A DNA stretch of 64,000 nucleotides from a virus. Each line of letters opens with the position of its first letter. The stretch's first letter is position 1. A program made the position numbers and the translations under genes. This document shows positions 806 to 59,766 of the stretch, piece by piece. The notes under the pieces are model-generated. The model did no database searches and was not told where the DNA came from. It saw only the letters and a program-made list of their open reading frames with translations. The stretch covers positions 1 to 64,000 of the IMG/VR virus record IMGVR_UViG_3300023174_003073; one strand, given 5' to 3'.

Positions 806-834
806 TTTACAACAAATACGTTTGGTGTTATACT
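806..834 (+). promoter_or_regulatory. Sigma70-type promoter P1 of the RNA region
   Basis: TTTACA at 806-811, 17-nt spacer, TATACT at 829-834. The predicted transcript starts with AATGAGTTGAG at 841, the same initial sequence as the second promoter. Confidence 0.65.
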
Positions 835-910
835 ATCTTTAATGAGTTGAGAGATTGATTCAAAGGTAAGTTGAAGATTCTAAGTGACGTAGAAATACAA
901 CACAAAAGAA

Positions 911-939
911 TTGACGATAAATCTGTTTAGATGTATAAT
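911..939 (+). promoter_or_regulatory. Sigma70-type promoter P2 of the RNA region
   Basis: TTGACG at 911-916, 17-nt spacer, TATAAT at 934-939. Predicted start at about 946, again AATGAGTTGAG. No convincing coding frame follows before 1843, so the product is probably structural RNA plus tRNAs. Confidence 0.75.
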
Positions 940-945
940 ACATTT

Positions 946-1250
946 AATGAGTTGAGAAAGCAGGTTGTTTCAAACAGCAAGACACGCTAGCAATAGCAAA
1001 AAGTCAAGCAGGAAACATTAAATGAGTTTGTGACTCAGCCTAAACTACTCTGAGACCGCTGAGGAACAGTGGTATCACAAGGGACCCATGTCAACATGGG
1101 TCCTCAGAGTATAAAGCAGAGGGAGAAAGTTCCCCGAGGCTGGCAGTTGAAAAATTACTGCCAAATGATTAAACAACGCAGTCGATTGAGACTAGTTGTA
1201 ATGTTCGTTAAAATTTTAATTTTTCGTATAGCCCTGTTTAAGTTACAGGG
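946..1250 (+). ncRNA. Candidate large structured RNA, 5' domain
   Basis: About 300 nt downstream of P2 with no supported ORF but at least six strong stems. An 8-bp stem (1047-1054/1103-1110) closes a three-way junction holding a 7-bp hairpin (1055-1061/1067-1073) and a perfect 9-bp hairpin with TCAA loop (1082-1090/1095-1103, sharing one base with the closing stem). Further hairpins lie at 1121-1134, 1141-1163, 1173-1199 and 1232-1250. This density is not expected by chance. Its position, in a phage-like genome beside tRNAs, matches where the giant phage RNAs GOLLD and ROOL occur, but I cannot align it to either family. Confidence 0.5.
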
Positions 1251-1251
1251 A

Positions 1252-1482
1252 CTATATGAAAACACATTAGGGTTACCTAGTCCGTTAGGGGTGAACGAAG
1301 GTTGATACGAACCGGATACCCATGAAGCAGGAGGGTTCTAGAGTATGACGAGACACCATCGAGTCAAAGGGCAAGAACTATACCAAACTCCAGGGAGGCG
1401 ACGGAACAACTAGGCACGTAATGAGGTCTTGACGCAAGTTGGTGATGAGTGTCAAAAACTTCCCTAATGTATTTTCATATAG
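1252..1482 (+). ncRNA. Stem-bounded RNA element A
   Basis: A 21-nt terminal stem pairs 1252-1272 with 1462-1482, with a single C.A mismatch. It encloses about 190 nt that contain smaller hairpins, for example GGTT/AACC around 1300-1313. No supported ORF. It may be the 3' domain of the RNA beginning at 946. Its ends resemble those of elements B, C and D. Confidence 0.5.
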
Positions 1483-1487
1483 TAGTT

Positions 1488-1566
1488 ATATGTAAACATG
1501 CTTCAGCGGGATAGCCCGTGTTGGATAGTTTCTGTTTAGTACAGTATCCGAAGTGTGTTTTCATAT
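1488..1566 (+). ncRNA. Stem-bounded RNA element B
   Basis: 1488-1504 pairs with 1550-1566 (16 of 17 positions including wobbles). The inside holds two hairpins, CGGG-ATAG-CCCG and one closed by GGATA/TATCC. The element ends 5 nt before tRNA-Glu. The right end repeats the CATATAGTA of element A. Confidence 0.5.
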
Positions 1567-1571
1567 AGTAT

Positions 1572-2358: not shown

Positions 2359-2555
2359 GAACGTTCTAGCGTCACTAGATACTCTGACCCGGAGGATGAG
2401 AAGTACAATGACATGTACGGGTGGTACACTTTAAACCGAAAGTGCGTTAGCAATACGATAACGGTCCCTGTCGGGAAGCGGGTGGAGGGTGCATGTGATG
2501 ACTCCAAAGGTTTGATGCACTATAATTACCGCCGAGGGATGCAGAGCATTTATAT
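2359..2555 (+). ncRNA. Structured non-coding tract before tRNA-Cys
   Basis: No supported ORF. Hairpins are visible at 2403-2418 (GTAC arms), 2427-2444 (CACTTT/AAAGTG), 2465-2476 (TCCC/GGGA) and 2489-2520 (GTGCAT/ATGCAC). The boundaries are unknown and the tract runs into tRNA-Cys. It may be a separate small RNA or a processed spacer. Confidence 0.35.
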
Positions 2556-2951: not shown

Positions 2952-3027
2952 GGAAGCATAACTCAATGGCTAGAGTACCCGGCTTTTAACCGGATAGTTG
3001 TGGGTTCGAGTCCCACTGCTTCTACCA
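2952..3027 (+). tRNA. tRNA-Lys(TTT)
   Basis: Anticodon loop CTTTTAA on CCGG/CCGG, acceptor GGAAGCA/TGCTTCT, discriminator A, encoded CCA. Its last bases (TACCA) also form the outer end of element C. Confidence 0.93.
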
Positions 3028-3110
3028 TATAAAAACACATTGAATACTAACTGCGACATCCATCGAAAGGTTAGTAGAAGTCTTGCAAGCCAGTGTGTTT
3101 CTATATGGTA
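3023..3110 (+). ncRNA. Stem-bounded RNA element C
   Basis: 3023-3042 pairs with 3091-3110 (19 of 20 positions). The enclosed 48 nt contain CTAAC/GTTAG and CTTGCAAG. The left arm overlaps the CCA end of tRNA-Lys(TTT), so folding of this stem and tRNA maturation would be mutually exclusive or ordered. Confidence 0.5.
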
Positions 3111-3191
3111 GTTATATAAAAACATATTTGACTAAACTCGGGTTCATCCGTGATAGCAATTGCTACTATATCAAATGTGTTTCTATATGGT
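3111..3191 (+). ncRNA. Stem-bounded RNA element D
   Basis: 3111-3131 pairs with 3171-3191 (20 of 21 including wobbles). Inside are CGG-GTTCAT-CCG and the palindrome TAGCAATTGCTA. The right arm repeats the TGTGTTTCTATATGGTA of element C. It ends 8 nt before tRNA-Tyr. Confidence 0.5.
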
Positions 3192-3199
3192 AAAAATTT

Positions 3200-3285: not shown

Positions 3286-3540
3286 AGTTTTGTAAGTGTT
3301 AGCAAGTGAAATCACGCTATTCAGTATTCTTCGAAGGTTCTGTATAGTAGAAGGTTGCGGGTTCGATGCCCGACTGGTCGCTTGAGTGGGACCGGTATAC
3401 ATGATGGCGTATCAGCTGGATGAATCCCAAGTAACGTACCGACTACTGTCCGGACTTGTATAATCAGTTGAATGGTGCTAATAATGTGGTAGCACTACTT
3501 ACAAATTAAATAAATTATTCGCAAAAAGTATAAATACAGT
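3286..3540 (+). other. Structured gene-free tract with a tRNA-like T-arm
   Basis: About 250 nt without a supported ORF. It contains CGGG-TTCGATG-CCCG, which looks like a tRNA T-arm, flanked at a distance by complementary CAAGTGA and TCGCTTG, and a GTGCTA/TAGCAC hairpin near 3475. It could be a decayed tRNA or another structured RNA. No CCA end or clear anticodon arm was found. Confidence 0.3.
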
Positions 3541-6029: not shown

Positions 6030-6188
6030 AGAACGAATGAAGTAAATTGCTGATTCGGTATCAGTAAAGTATTTCATTCTGATTGAGAAAGTGTAAATAT
6101 CATGTACGATGATGTAACAGGTGGAATCGTTACTCATTGAAAGATGGATGAACAATCCTGAATCAGTGATAGCATCGTAAGTGTGCAT
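6024..6188 (-). CDS. Small hypothetical protein
   Basis: 54 aa from ATG 6188 (MHTYDAITDSG). The longer frame upstream is only the antisense of tRNA-Gly. It contains YFTDTESAIYFIRSL at the C-terminus. No clear ribosome site, so moderate support. Confidence 0.45.
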   Translation of the reverse strand: MHTYDAITDSGLFIHLSMSNDSTCYIIVHDIYTFSIRMKYFTDTESAIYFIRSL

Positions 6189-6200
6189 AAAAGTATTTAT

Positions 6201-13980: not shown

Positions 13981-14009
13981 TTGACGTTAATCACTTAATC
14001 ATATACAAT
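13981..14009 (+). promoter_or_regulatory. Sigma70-type promoter before rubrerythrin
   Basis: TTGACG 13981-13986, 17-nt spacer, TACAAT 14004-14009. It is followed at once by a perfect dyad at 14016-14030. Confidence 0.7.
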
Positions 14010-14015
14010 ACGTGT

Positions 14016-14030
14016 ATTGATTAAATCAAT
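14016..14030. promoter_or_regulatory. Operator-like palindrome at the start site
   Basis: ATTGATT-A-AATCAAT, 7-bp arms with a single central base, lying where transcription from the promoter at 13981 would begin. The loop is too short for an RNA hairpin, so a repressor site is more likely. Confidence 0.45.
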
Positions 14031-14033
14031 TTT

Positions 14034-14203
14034 AGGATCGGCACAGCAACAAACTCATTAACTATGGACTGTTAGACACTGTGGTAGTAACTGGAGCAGA
14101 GTGCGTAAAAACACCGAGCGTTGAAGGGTGCTATTGAAGCAAGACTAACGAACCAGGTGTGATGGCCCTGGCTAAACAAGCAGTCAACAACGATCCTGTT
14201 AAC
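14034..14203 (+). promoter_or_regulatory. Structured leader of the rubrerythrin gene
   Basis: Outer stem AGGATCG (14034-14040) with CGATCCT (14191-14197), followed directly by GTTAA that can pair with TTAAC at 14058-14062, giving a pseudoknot topology. A CCAGG/CCTGG hairpin lies inside. No ORF. It ends about 20 nt before the start codon and could be a cis-regulatory RNA or a separate small RNA. Confidence 0.45.
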
Positions 14204-51733: not shown

Positions 51734-51762
51734 ATTGTATACCCAAAGTGATTTACTGTCAA
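51734..51762 (-). promoter_or_regulatory. Sigma70 promoter cassette
   Basis: Minus strand TTGACA (51757-51762), 17-nt spacer, TACAAT (51734-51739). The -35 overlaps the clpP stop region. Confidence 0.88.
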
Positions 51763-52346
51763 CCGCGCTTTGTAACTATTTCGTCTACAAGACCATAGTC
51801 TAATGCTTGTTGGGCACTCATAAAATTGTCTCGTTCCATGTCAGCTTGTAGTACATCAAAAGTTTTACCTTTAGAATTATGCTTAACATAGATTTCAGTG
51901 AGGTTCTTTTTCATAGATATAATTTCATTGACTTGAATCAGCATATCAGTTGCTTGACCTCTTGCACCACCTGAGGGTTGGTGAATCATATGTCGTGCGT
52001 TTGGCAACATAAAACGTTTACCGGGTGATCCTGCTTGTGCAAGCAAACTGCCCATGCTACATGCTTGACCCATTACGATTGTATGAATATTAGGCTTGAC
52101 AAATTGCATAGCATCATAGATAGCCATACCTGCAGTTACACTACCGCCGGGTGAATTGATATACATTGAGATATCTTTTTCACCCTCTGATTCTAAGAAT
52201 AGTAATTGGGCAACGATAAGATTTGCCATTTGGTCGTGTACTTCACCCTCAAGCAAAATTACACGGTCACGCAATAAGCGACTGTAGATATCATAGCTAC
52301 GTTCACCTTTAGCTGTTTGTTCAATAACGATTGGGACTAAACTCAT
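51759..52346 (-). CDS. clpP: ClpP protease subunit
   Basis: 195 aa, close to the length of mature ClpP. Catalytic triad: Ser97 in GQACSMGS, His122 in MIHQPSGG and Asp173 in [23 protein letters not shown] is the usual substrate-binding strand. The N-terminal propeptide is short. It forms a tetradecameric barrel with an AAA partner; the phage ClpX at 58.5 kb has the IGF docking loop. It may form mixed complexes with host ClpP. Confidence 0.95.
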
Positions 52347-56331: not shown

Positions 56332-58224
56332 TTAAACAGTCTCTGCTGACTCTTTAACTTCTGCATCAACCACATCTTCAGGTTGTGATTGTTTCTTTTC
56401 AGCTTCCTCAGCATCATGTTTAGCTTTAGTGATTGGACTAATCGCCTCATACAATTTAGGAATGCTTTCTTGGATGACTGTTGGATCATCACCTTTAATT
56501 GCTTCTTCAACTGCTTTGATTGCTTCCTCAGCCTTAGTTTTTTCTTCTAGTGTAACTTTGTCACTATACTTGTCAAAGTCTTGTTTGAATCCATTTAGTG
56601 TAGATTCTGCACCATTACGTGCTTCAATCAATTCACGGGCTTTCTTATCAGACTCAGCATTCAACTCAGCATCTTTAACCATTTGTTGAATCTCGGCTTC
56701 TGATAAACCGCTATTTGACTTAATAGTGATTTTGTTTTCCTTACCAGTGCCTTTGTCTTTAGCACCGATGTGCATAATACCATTAGCATCAATATCAAAT
56801 GTAACTTCAATTTGTGGCACGCCTTTTGGTGCTGGTGGAATTCCATCTAAGTTGAAATCACCTAGCAACTTGTTGTACTGTGCAATCTCACGCTCACCTT
56901 GGTATACTTTGATAGTAACTGCTTGTTGATTGTTTTCTGCTGTACTGAAAGTTTGACTTTGTTTAGTAGGAATAGTTGTATTCTTTTGAATCAACTTACT
57001 CATTACACCACCTAGTGTTTCGATACCAAGACTTAGTGGAGTAACATCAAGCAATAGAACGTCAGTACGTCCACCACCTAAAACATCACCTTGAATTGCG
57101 GCACCAGCAGCCACTGCTTCGTCTGGGTTAACATCCTTGCGAGGTGCTTTACCAAAGAACTTCTCAACAGCCTCTTGTACTTTAGGCATACGTGTCATAC
57201 CGCCAACAAGAATAACCTCGTCAATATCACTGTTACTTACTTTGGCATCTTGCATTGCAACTTTACAAGGTGCAATACTACGTTGAATCAATTCGTCAAC
57301 TAAACTTTCTAACTTAGCACGTGACAATTTGACATTCATATGCTTAGGACCACTAGCGTCTGCTGTTACGTATGGCAAGTTAACATCTGTTTGTGCTGAA
57401 CTTGATAATTCAATCTTAGCTTTTTCTGCGGCTTCTTTCAATCGTTGTAGTGCTAACACATCTTTACTTAAATCAACTCCTGAATCTTTCTTAAATTCAT
57501 CAATTAAGAAATCCATGATGCGTTGGTCAAAGTCTTCACCACCTAAGAATGTATCACCGTTTGTTGACAATACTTCAACTTGTGTGTCACCATCAACGTT
57601 GGCAATCTCAATGATTGATACGTCAAATGTACCACCACCTAAGTCATAGACAGCAACTTTACGGTCACGCTTTTCCTGTTTATCCACACCATACGCTAAT
57701 GCGGCTGCTGTGGGTTCGTTAATGATACGCAACACTTCCAAGCCTGCGATTTTACCTGCATCTTTGGTTGCTTGTCTTTGACTATCATTAAAATAAGCGG
57801 GAACAGTAATAACTGCTTGTGTAACTTCATGACCTAGATAATCTTCCGCAGTCTTTTTCATCTTGCGTAAGACTTCGGCTGAAATCTGTGGGGGTGCTAA
57901 CTTATTATCGTTTACTTGAACCCATGCATCACCGTTGTCATTTTCAACGATGGTATATGGCATCAAGTCTATATCTTTTTGTACAGCCTCTTCTTTGAAT
58001 TTACGGCCAATCAGTCGCTTTGCGGCATAGATTGTATTCTTTGGATTAGTAACTGCTTGACGTTTAGCACTTGCACCTACAAGAATCTCATCATTGGCAT
58101 AGGCAATGATTGAGGGTGTAGTTCTAGCACCTTCGCTGTTTTCAATTACTTTGGGGATTCCGTTTTCAATGACGGCTACACATGAATTTGTGGTACCTAG
58201 GTCGATACCGATTACTTTGCTCAT
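56332..58224 (-). CDS. dnaK: Hsp70 chaperone DnaK
   Basis: 630 aa, close to bacterial length. [13 protein letters not shown] at the start, the ATP-binding [11 protein letters not shown] near 195, [14 protein letters not shown] near 340, and the substrate-binding domain with [13 protein letters not shown] follow. The C-terminal lid is intact and ends in an acidic tail. It folds client proteins with a J partner (one is encoded at 189-767) and a GrpE not found here. A complete Hsp70 is rare in phages. Confidence 0.97.
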
Positions 58225-58325: not shown

Positions 58326-58547
58326 TTAATATAGTTTTTTGGGTAATTGTTGGTCTCGTAGATGTTTCTTCCATCTACTTTTTGCTTTGCTCTTAGCAAC
58401 TTTGCGCTGGGCAGTGGGTTTAACGAACTCTTGACGGTCGCGGACTTCTTGCAGTAGACCTTGCTCTGCAATTTTCTTTTTGAATTTACGCAATGCTTTT
58501 TCAACATTGCCATCAGTTACTAGTACCCGTCTTCCGTTTCTTGCCAT
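58326..58547 (-). CDS. rpsU: Ribosomal protein bS21
   Basis: 73 aa. NVEKALRKFKKKIAEQGLLQEVR and the basic tail (KSKAKSRWKKHLRD) match bS21, which sits near the anti-Shine-Dalgarno on the 30S subunit. Phage bS21 is thought to replace the host copy and bias initiation. It starts 35 bp inside the end of clpX, in another frame. Confidence 0.93.
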   Translation of the reverse strand: MARNGRRVLVTDGNVEKALRKFKKKIAEQGLLQEVRDRQEFVKPTAQRKVAKSKAKSRWKKHLRDQQLPKKLY

Positions 58548-59736
58548 ATATTGGTGTGGGATTTAAAATTTGATCCACATCTATATTTAGCACAGTTACG
58601 TTATTTTCTTTGTATTGCTTGGTATAGAACATATGACACATTAACACACGCTCAATCTCAGTATGCAATCCACGTGCTCCAGTCTGTAGTGTTAGTGTAT
58701 TTTCAGCAATTTGCTCAAGGGCTTCTTTTGTAAAGGATAGATTGATATTATCTAAACTTAGCAAATACTTATATTGACTGATATAATTATTCTTTACATC
58801 GGTCAAGATATTGACTAATTGTTCTTTGGTCAATTCTTGGATACTGACTGTTGTAGTGAAACGACCGATAAATTCAGGAATCATACCAAATTTAGTTAAG
58901 TCATCAGGACTAACCTTTGTCAAGTCACCCTCAATCTTGCTGTCTGTGATAGTAGCATTAAATCCAATGCTGGTACCATTCATACGATTAGCAATGATAT
59001 CCTTTAATCCAACGAATGCACCACCTGCAATGAATAATATATCTTTAGTGTTGATTTCACTCATATCACCGCCGGGGTGTTTACGACCACCTTCTTTGGG
59101 AATACGAACAGTGCTACCTTCTACCATTTTAAGCAATGCTTGTTGCACACCTTCACCTGATACGTCACGTGTGATACTTGCACTTTCACCTTTGCGGGCA
59201 ATCTTGTCAATTTCATCAACAAAGATAATACCGCGCTCTGCAAGTTTTACATCACCACCTGCGGCATGAATCAGCATACTAATCATAGACTCAACATCAT
59301 CACCTACATAACCGGCTTCTGTTAAACTTGTAGCATCAGCAACGATAAAGGGCACTTTGAGATATTTTGCGGCTGTCTTAGCAAGTAACGTTTTACCACT
59401 ACCAGTAGGACCAACAATCAGTACATTACCTTTTTGTATCTCAATATCTTTTGGTGGATTGTTGATTCGTTTATAGTGATTGGCAATAGCTACACTTAGA
59501 ATCATCTTAGCATCTTCTTGACCAACTACGTGCATATCAAGATACTCTTTGATAGCCTCTGGGTCACGATTTGGTTCAATTGGATTTTCAGGTTCTACTT
59601 CATCATTGATTAGATTTTGACATAGTTCCACGCATTCGTTGCATATAGCAACCTTTTCACTAACAACAAGTTTCTTTACGATTTCTTTGCTGTTACCACA
59701 AAAGTGACAATAATTTATTTTAGATTCTTCGGACAT
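58513..59736 (-). CDS. clpX: ClpX unfoldase
   Basis: 407 aa from ATG 59736 (GTG 59751 possible). Zinc-binding C10, C13, C32, C35; Walker A GPTGSGKT (109-116); pore loop GYVG; IFVDEIDKIAR Walker B; RKH loop; SIGF docking loop for ClpP. All functional motifs are intact. Unfolds tagged proteins for ClpP. With phage clpP it makes a complete protease that could redirect host proteolysis. bS21 is embedded in its 3' end. Confidence 0.96.
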   Translation of the reverse strand: MSEESKINYCHFCGNSKEIVKKLVVSEKVAICNECVELCQNLINDEVEPENPIEPNRDPEAIKEYLDMHVVGQEDAKMILSVAIANHYKRINNPPKDIEIQKGNVLIVGPTGSGKTLLAKTAAKYLKVPFIVADATSLTEAGYVGDDVESMISMLIHAAGGDVKLAERGIIFVDEIDKIARKGESASITRDVSGEGVQQALLKMVEGSTVRIPKEGGRKHPGGDMSEINTKDILFIAGGAFVGLKDIIANRMNGTSIGFNATITDSKIEGDLTKVSPDDLTKFGMIPEFIGRFTTTVSIQELTKEQLVNILTDVKNNYISQYKYLLSLDNINLSFTKEALEQIAENTLTLQTGARGLHTEIERVLMCHMFYTKQYKENNVTVLNIDVDQILNPTPIYGKKRKTGTSN

Positions 59737-59766
59737 GTTATTACTTATCACTTTGTGACATTTTAA

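What the first reader, a model, noticed from the sequence alone, without database searches (positions are those of the whole stretch)
806..1570. Promoter-driven ornate RNA beside the tRNA array (GOLLD/ROOL-like candidate)
About 620 nt without a credible gene, started by two sigma70 promoters and carrying at least eight strong stems, including a three-way junction with a perfect 9-bp hairpin and a 21-nt closing stem of element A. Giant phage RNAs such as GOLLD and ROOL are known to sit beside phage tRNAs. This could be a divergent member or a new class. The stems are directly visible; the family link is inference.
Basis: partly seen in the sequence, partly recalled or inferred. Interest (0 to 1): 0.9.

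Follow-up and report, generated by a model that had tools for sequence, protein, structure and literature searches.

The report
New phage RNA beside tRNA genes
A large phage carries, at the head of its tRNA genes, a previously undescribed folded RNA inside a control region built like that of bacterial ribosomal RNA genes, and related stem 'clasps' grip the 3' ends of three particular tRNAs (Lys-UUU, Glu-UUC, Gln-UUG), the same tRNAs that several bacterial anti-phage enzymes cut.

Summary
806-1570 is non-coding, starts with two sigma70-type promoters and is strongly structured (z = -5.9). The GOLLD/ROOL/HEARO link does not hold: no Rfam match even at E = 10. Element A (1252-1482, "RNA-A") is a new RNA family. 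Forty-four aligned relatives in IMG/VR contigs keep a P1-(P2[P3,P4],P5) fold with extensive covariation, and lengths and frames exclude a protein. In 29 relatives it sits as in the window: tandem promoters, a boxB-like hairpin, boxA (GTTCTTTAAAA, the rrn antitermination signal), then RNA-A inside a long closing stem, then tRNA-Glu(UUC). This is the plan of a bacterial rrn leader. In 15 others RNA-A follows tRNA-Glu(UUC), and its closing stem begins with the tRNA's own CCA. The same "CCA clasp", with unrelated inserts, is specific to UUN-anticodon tRNAs: in a scan for the clasp arms alone, 58 of 60 clasps with an identifiable tRNA follow Lys(UUU), Gln(UUG) or Glu(UUC). The window has one after tRNA-Lys(UUU). 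A companion RNA-B, absent from this record, has a varying but always palindromic loop, the signature of kissing dimers. Function is unproven. I favour a processed stable RNA, perhaps guarding nuclease-targeted tRNAs.

The parts
806..834 (+). promoter P1, TTTACA-17-TATACT with TG before the -10
   Evidence: tandem promoters kept in 30 of 37 distinct leaders
911..939 (+). promoter P2, TTGACG-17-TATAAT
   Evidence: aligned in relatives
940..1043 (+). leader element, about 80-89% conserved in L002, L004, L019, L028, L034, L044 and others
1047..1162 (+). RNA-D: three-way junction (ACTCTGAG/CTCAGAGT) with a 9-bp hairpin at 1082-1103, then a GGGA..TCCC hairpin and GGCAGT-TGAAAAATT-ACTGCC
   Evidence: 26 viral contigs, helices change on both sides by eye
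1173..1199 (+). boxB-like hairpin ACAAC...GTTGT ending 3 nt before boxA
   Evidence: stem sequence varies between relatives (GTTGA/TCAAC, GCAAC/GTTGC, ACAAC/GTTGT, CTAGTTAG/TTAACTAG); excess over shuffles modest
1203..1213 (+). boxA, window variant GTTCGTTAAAA (relatives GTTCTTTAAAA)
   Evidence: rrn boxA consensus GYTCTTTAANA from PMC5725501; the same motif in three Burkholderiales rrn operons
1225..1258 (+). H0 hairpin CGTATAG-CCCTG...CAGGG-CTATATG; its 3' arm is also the 5' arm of RNA-A's P1 stem, so the two lower stems exclude each other
   Evidence: sequence; both pairings kept in L006, where the arm has changed
1252..1482 (+). RNA-A (element A): P1 1252-1269 with 1465-1482; P2a CCTAGT 1276-1281 with ACTAGG 1409-1414; P2b CCGT 1282-1285 with ACGG 1401-1404; P3, P4, P5 between
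   Evidence: model R1 92.5 bits, E = 1.4e-22, although the window is one of the 21 seeds; covariation
1486..1568 (+). small bracketed cassette with the same arms (TATATGTAAACATGCTTC / GAAGTGTGTTTTCATATA) and an unrelated insert
   Evidence: also in L025, L028, L054, L067
1572..1646 (+). tRNA-Glu (TTC)
2952..3027 (+). tRNA-Lys (TTT); its encoded CCA is the start of the clasp
3022..3111 (+). CCA clasp of tRNA-Lys(UUU): CTACCATATAAAAACACATTG / CAGTGTGTTTCTATATGGTAG, 48-nt insert
   Evidence: (I7, 90%)
3112..3195 (+). second bracketed cassette following the clasp
   Evidence: related inserts in L029 and L055
192..767 (-). divergent DnaJ-domain gene (label from its sequence), used as anchor to find related loci

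Best explanation
806-1570 is the head of the phage's tRNA operon, built like a bacterial rrn leader, and RNA-A is a structured non-coding RNA carried in the place that 16S rRNA holds in rrn. Shown here by sequence: tandem promoters, a boxB-like hairpin, a boxA at constant spacing, a long closing stem, a covarying multi-helix domain, and tRNA-Glu(UUC) as constant neighbour. Inferred: (1) host Nus factors load on boxA and make the polymerase read through the long structured, untranslated array; (2) the 5' arm of P1 is first held in hairpin H0 next to boxA and swaps to the 3' arm once that emerges, closing RNA-A as the leader-trailer helix closes pre-16S; (3) a double-strand nuclease of the RNase III type cuts the closing stem, which often has a mismatch at one fixed position, and with RNase P releases RNA-A as a stable RNA and frees the tRNA. 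What the released RNA does is not shown. The tie of RNA-A and of the clasps to tRNA-Glu(UUC), tRNA-Lys(UUU) and tRNA-Gln(UUG) suggests that it controls or protects these tRNAs.
For: RNA-A fold: 44 loci, 79.2% of cells paired against 65.6% shuffled, 368 double changes against 133, 0 of 500 shuffles; slid controls 31-42%. The P2 helix exists in 27 distinct sequence combinations with a mean of 5.4 of 6 pairs, against 3.2 (maximum 4.0) when strands are swapped. Relatives met through the RNA-B pattern, not through any RNA-A seed, score E from about 1e-36 to 1e-22. boxA lies 47-52 nt before P1 in all 29 loci of the window's type; GTTCTTTAAAA exactly in 27 leaders; the same motif precedes 16S and/or 23S in Cupriavidus, Variovorax and Caballeronia. 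Tandem promoters in 30 of 37 leaders. Neighbour: 15 of 15 loci of the second type have RNA-A directly after tRNA-Glu(TTC), overlapping its CCA; in the first type the first tRNA found downstream is Glu in 24 loci and Asp in 3. L099 has lost the RNA-A core but keeps its closing stem, and other leaders carry only a 30-70 nt insert, so stem and core are separable modules. rrn parallels: PMC10250234 (leader-trailer helix, boxA, boxC tether), PMC5725501.
Against: No RNA data: transcription, antitermination, cleavage and stability are all inferred. The window's own boxA has one base off the consensus (GTTCGTTAAAA), shared by a small clade. The host is unknown; Burkholderiales is only compatible. RNase III cleavage is not shown, and the fixed mismatch is absent in many copies. 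The alignment A3 was fitted to the model structure, which favours that structure. Relatives share ancestry, so counts are not independent events.
Confidence: 0.6

Rival explanations
1. Clasp-linked RNAs, RNA-A among them, defend the tRNAs that host anti-phage nucleases attack. Held on or near pre-tRNAs with UUN anticodons, they shield the CCA or the anticodon arm, act as decoy, or keep a reserve of unprocessed tRNA that is matured late.
For: Clasps follow Lys(UUU), Glu(UUC), Gln(UUG) in 68 of 152 contexts but only 29 of 1043 contexts of other tRNAs; in a scan keyed to the clasp arms alone, 58 of 60 with an identifiable tRNA (44 Lys, 11 Gln, 3 Glu). The same three tRNAs are among the top substrates of Cas13a (PMC11042736); RloC takes Glu and Gln, perhaps through the shared wobble base (PMC3874168); PrrC takes Lys (PMC13191261). 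Cas12a3 cuts CCA tails (PMC12851939).
Against: In the window's arrangement RNA-A is upstream of tRNA-Glu and does not hold its CCA. Cas12a3 cuts diverse tRNAs, not only UUN. The host and its defences are unknown. No RNA-repair ligase of the tested families was found in the record, but the record may be incomplete and one of the three searches had no positive control.
Confidence: 0.2
2. Only the stem matters. Bracket and clasp are tRNA maturation or spacing devices, and the inserts, RNA-A included, are passengers.
For: Many brackets hold short unrelated inserts; L099 keeps a stem without the core; leaders such as L040 and L057 have only a 30-nt insert.
Against: RNA-A's core is under selection for its own fold in 44 loci, with conserved unpaired stretches, and keeps its neighbour. 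RNA-B likewise is conserved.
Confidence: 0.15
3. Divergent member of GOLLD, ROOL or HEARO.
For: Position beside phage tRNAs and ornate folding. RNA-B, next to RNA-A in many relatives, carries the palindrome signature used for GOLLD and OLE multimers.
Against: No Rfam match up to E = 10; 231 nt against more than 800 for many GOLLD; RNA-A itself has no conserved palindromic loop.
Confidence: 0.02
4. The pairing is a by-product of repeats or palindromic DNA (recombination sites) and not an RNA function.
For: Bracket arms recur many times in the arrays and cassettes are exchanged, as recombination at the arms would give.
Against: Internal helices P2, P3 and P5 covary and are not repeats; the elements point the same way as the tRNAs and promoters.
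Confidence: 0.03

Closest known systems
Bacterial rrn operon leader (boxB-boxA-boxC, leader-trailer helix; PMC10250234, PMC5725501)
   Same: Tandem promoters, boxB-like hairpin just before boxA, boxA of the same sequence, a long stem enclosing a structured RNA, tRNA downstream.
   Different: Encloses a phage RNA of 231 nt and not rRNA; boxA to stem spacing is longer, with hairpin H0 between; found in phages.
GOLLD and ROOL RNAs (PMC12286853)
   Same: Phage-encoded ornate RNAs of unknown function, often beside tRNA islands.
   Different: No sequence or structure match in Rfam; much smaller; different helices. The palindromic kissing-loop feature is in the companion RNA-B, not in RNA-A.
Stable RNAs of the T4 tRNA cluster (species 1 and 2; from memory, not tested)
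   Same: Non-tRNA stable RNAs co-transcribed with phage tRNAs.
   Different: No comparison was made; T4 lacks the described clasp as far as I recall.

Membership tests
GOLLD | match to the Rfam covariance model | tested here: not met
   no match up to E = 10
GOLLD | length, many members over 800 nt, with a universally conserved 3' region (PMC12286853) | tested here: not met
   RNA-A is 206-261 nt and bounded by its closing stem
GOLLD | beside phage tRNA islands | tested here: met
ROOL | match to the Rfam covariance model | tested here: not met
ROOL | assembly into an RNA-only nanocage | not testable with these tools
   needs cryo-EM
HEARO | match to the Rfam covariance model | tested here: not met
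rrn-type antitermination leader | boxA matching GYTCTTTAANA | tested here: inconclusive
   met in 27 distinct relative leaders; window has GTTCGTTAAAA, one base off
rrn-type antitermination leader | hairpin (boxB) just upstream of boxA | tested here: inconclusive
   present and varying as a pair in most leaders; mean 5.1 pairs against 3.6 in shuffles
rrn-type antitermination leader | leader-trailer helix of more than 17 bp enclosing the RNA | tested here: met
   22-nt arms, 95% complementary; helix 1 has 96% of cells paired
rrn-type antitermination leader | Nus factors bind and read-through increases | not testable with these tools
   needs a reporter or pull-down
T4 species 1 and 2 RNAs | sequence or structure relation | not tested
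   no reference was fetched

The most novel reading that the evidence does not exclude
Large aquatic phages run a tRNA-guarding RNA system. Structured RNAs, exchanged as cassettes, are tied by a double-stranded clasp to the 3' CCA of exactly those tRNAs (Lys-UUU, Glu-UUC, Gln-UUG) that share the wobble modification recognised by bacterial anticodon nucleases, and are expressed from an operon that borrows the rRNA antitermination and leader-trailer design. RNA-A is its leading member, and RNA-B works as a kissing-loop homodimer.
Probability: 0.2. Interest if true: 0.95.

Novelty: categorically new. Interest (0 to 1): 0.86.

Why it matters
It adds at least two covarying RNA families (RNA-A, RNA-B), and a third by inspection (RNA-D), to the few known from phage tRNA arrays. 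It shows phages using the rrn plan (boxA plus leader-trailer stem) for tRNA operons, and reveals a sharp, unexplained rule: clasps sit on UUN-anticodon tRNAs. That rule makes the old question of what the non-tRNA RNAs in phage tRNA clusters do directly testable, and links it to tRNA-cutting defences.

Tried and rejected
GOLLD, ROOL, HEARO or any Rfam family: none. Protein-coding: rejected by length, frame and stops. Presence in bacteria: a pattern scan of 257 Gb of GTDB genomes gave two matches, both chance (no tRNA, no RNA-A nearby). Named phages and plasmids: megablast of the first 8 kb and blastn of RNA-A and RNA-B gave nothing beyond weak chance or tRNA matches. Palindromic loop in RNA-A: none conserved. 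RNA-B in the window's record: not found. RNA-repair ligases in the record: none. A first hand-written RNA-B structure was one column off and was corrected. Group II intron domain V and RNase P RNA were considered by eye and dropped: the resemblance is weak and in one subgroup only.

Full report
What was checked. The window is the first 64 kb of a 170,986-base IMG/VR virus record. Region 806-1570 lies between a divergent DnaJ-domain gene (192-767, -) and tRNA-Glu(TTC) at 1572, near the head of an array of 21 tRNAs running the same way. Two sigma70-type promoters open it (806-834 and 911-939). It has no credible ORF and folds far better than its shuffles (z = -5.9).

Related loci. The DnaJ-like protein found 17 related loci. 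In most of those with tRNAs nearby (L002-L007, L013-L016) the order is DnaJ(-), promoters, leader, and then in most cases tRNA-Glu first. A pattern from the most constant stretch found 55 viral stretches, against two chance matches in 257 Gb of bacterial genomes. A pattern from a second RNA next to it, RNA-B, found 94.

RNA-A is a real, new structured RNA. A covariance model from 21 sequences finds 44 loci that I aligned. Some fifteen of them were met only through the RNA-B pattern and still score about 92-143 bits. Pairing is 79% of cells against 66% in shuffles and 31-42% in slid controls; 44 of 57 pairs show a change on both sides. The P2 helix, partly misaligned in that table, was counted separately: 27 distinct combinations keep 5.4 of 6 pairs, against 3.2 when strands are swapped. 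The search for the 3' strand was local, which favours the observed value. Consensus: P1 closing stem; P2a plus P2b (window CCUAGU-CCGU with ACGG..ACUAGG) leading to a junction with P3 and P4; P5 beside it; GACGG-type loops on P3 and P5 in many members; conserved unpaired CCGUUAGG or CCAGUAGG (partly in P2b) and GUAAUG. No Rfam family matches.

The leader copies rrn. In all 29 loci of the window's type a boxA lies 47-52 nt before P1. It reads GTTCTTTAAAA in 27 distinct leaders, which fits the rrn consensus GYTCTTTAANA (PMC5725501). I checked three Burkholderiales rrn operons: GTTCTTTAACA, GTTCTTTAAAA or GCTCTTTAAAA stand before 16S or 23S. The window itself has GTTCGTTAAAA. A hairpin whose stem varies as a pair ends a few nt before boxA (the excess over shuffles is modest). 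The 5' arm of P1 can also pair with CATATAG just upstream (H0); in L006 all three strands have changed together. PMC10250234 discusses the same logic for pre-16S: boxA holds the leader strand near the polymerase until the trailer strand emerges and the leader-trailer helix closes.

The neighbour is constant. In the window's type RNA-A precedes tRNA-Glu(TTC), alone or with another small RNA between (24 loci; tRNA-Asp is the first detected in three). In the second type (15 loci) it follows tRNA-Glu(TTC), and the P1 stem begins with that tRNA's encoded CCA (CCATATTAAAACGCATT ... AATGTGTTTTAATATGG).

The CCA clasp. The same arms with unrelated inserts follow other tRNAs. Over 1195 clustered contexts the clasp is on Lys(UUU) 27/49, Glu(UUC) 24/60, Gln(UUG) 17/43 and all others 29/1043 (Fisher p = 7e-45, though contexts share ancestry and Glu was partly a search seed; the control at shifted positions is 33 of 6908). 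These three tRNAs share U34-U35 and, in bacteria, the mnm5s2U wobble base (established knowledge). RloC takes Glu and Gln, with that base proposed as the cue (PMC3874168); PrrC takes Lys (PMC13191261); Cas13a prefers Lys, Glu, Gln and Thr (PMC11042736). Cas12a3 cuts CCA tails, and its authors note that viral means of resistance are unknown (PMC12851939). The link to defence is inference.

RNA-B. About 122 nt, 98% of cells paired, 136 double changes against 33. Its apical loop carries a palindrome centred exactly 9 nt before CCGTTGAG in 36 of 36 sequences, at least 8 nt long in 34, in about ten different sequences. PMC12286853 uses this kind of palindrome switching as evidence for intermolecular kissing loops in OLE and GOLLD. 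RNA-B is not in the window's record.

RNA-D. 1047-1162 recurs in 26 contigs in varied contexts, including between protein genes; its helices change on both sides by eye. It was not modelled.

Limits. Everything is sequence inference. The host is unknown, no transcript has been seen, and counts over related phages are not independent. The literature searched is the open PMC library; I found no description of RNA-A, RNA-B or the clasp there, which does not prove absence elsewhere.

Verdict. The family guess is wrong; what the evidence shows instead is a new RNA family in an rrn-like leader, and a clasp rule tied to three tRNAs.

Noticed in passing
L076:2229-2350 (-), L037:12966-13089 (-) and 34 more: RNA-B: new structured RNA of about 122 nt beside tRNAs, with an apical loop that is always a palindrome but in about ten different sequences, the signature of a kissing-loop homodimer.
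   Followed up: yes
window 3022-3111 and 3112-3195; L177-L246: CCA clasps: stems that start at the encoded CCA of tRNA-Lys(UUU), tRNA-Gln(UUG) or tRNA-Glu(UUC) and hold unrelated inserts; very widespread in viral contigs.
   Followed up: yes
window 1047-1162; L092, L115, L137, L160, L163: RNA-D: three-way junction plus two hairpins, found also between protein genes in other phages; function unknown.
   Followed up: partly
window 2360-2555, 3290-3500, 6030-6200, 14000-14200: Further gene-free stretches between tRNAs and genes, possibly structured RNAs.
   Followed up: no
L002:4340-4445 (-), L019:1053-1150, L038:422-580: Other stem-closed RNAs fill the slot between RNA-A and tRNA-Glu in relatives (TTGTGC...GCACAA; TGTAAAACTATTATTAAG...).
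   Followed up: no
window 51762-52346, 56335-58224, 58513-59751, 192-767: The phage carries a ClpP-like protease and, judged from their sequences, DnaK-, ClpX- and DnaJ-like genes.
   Followed up: partly
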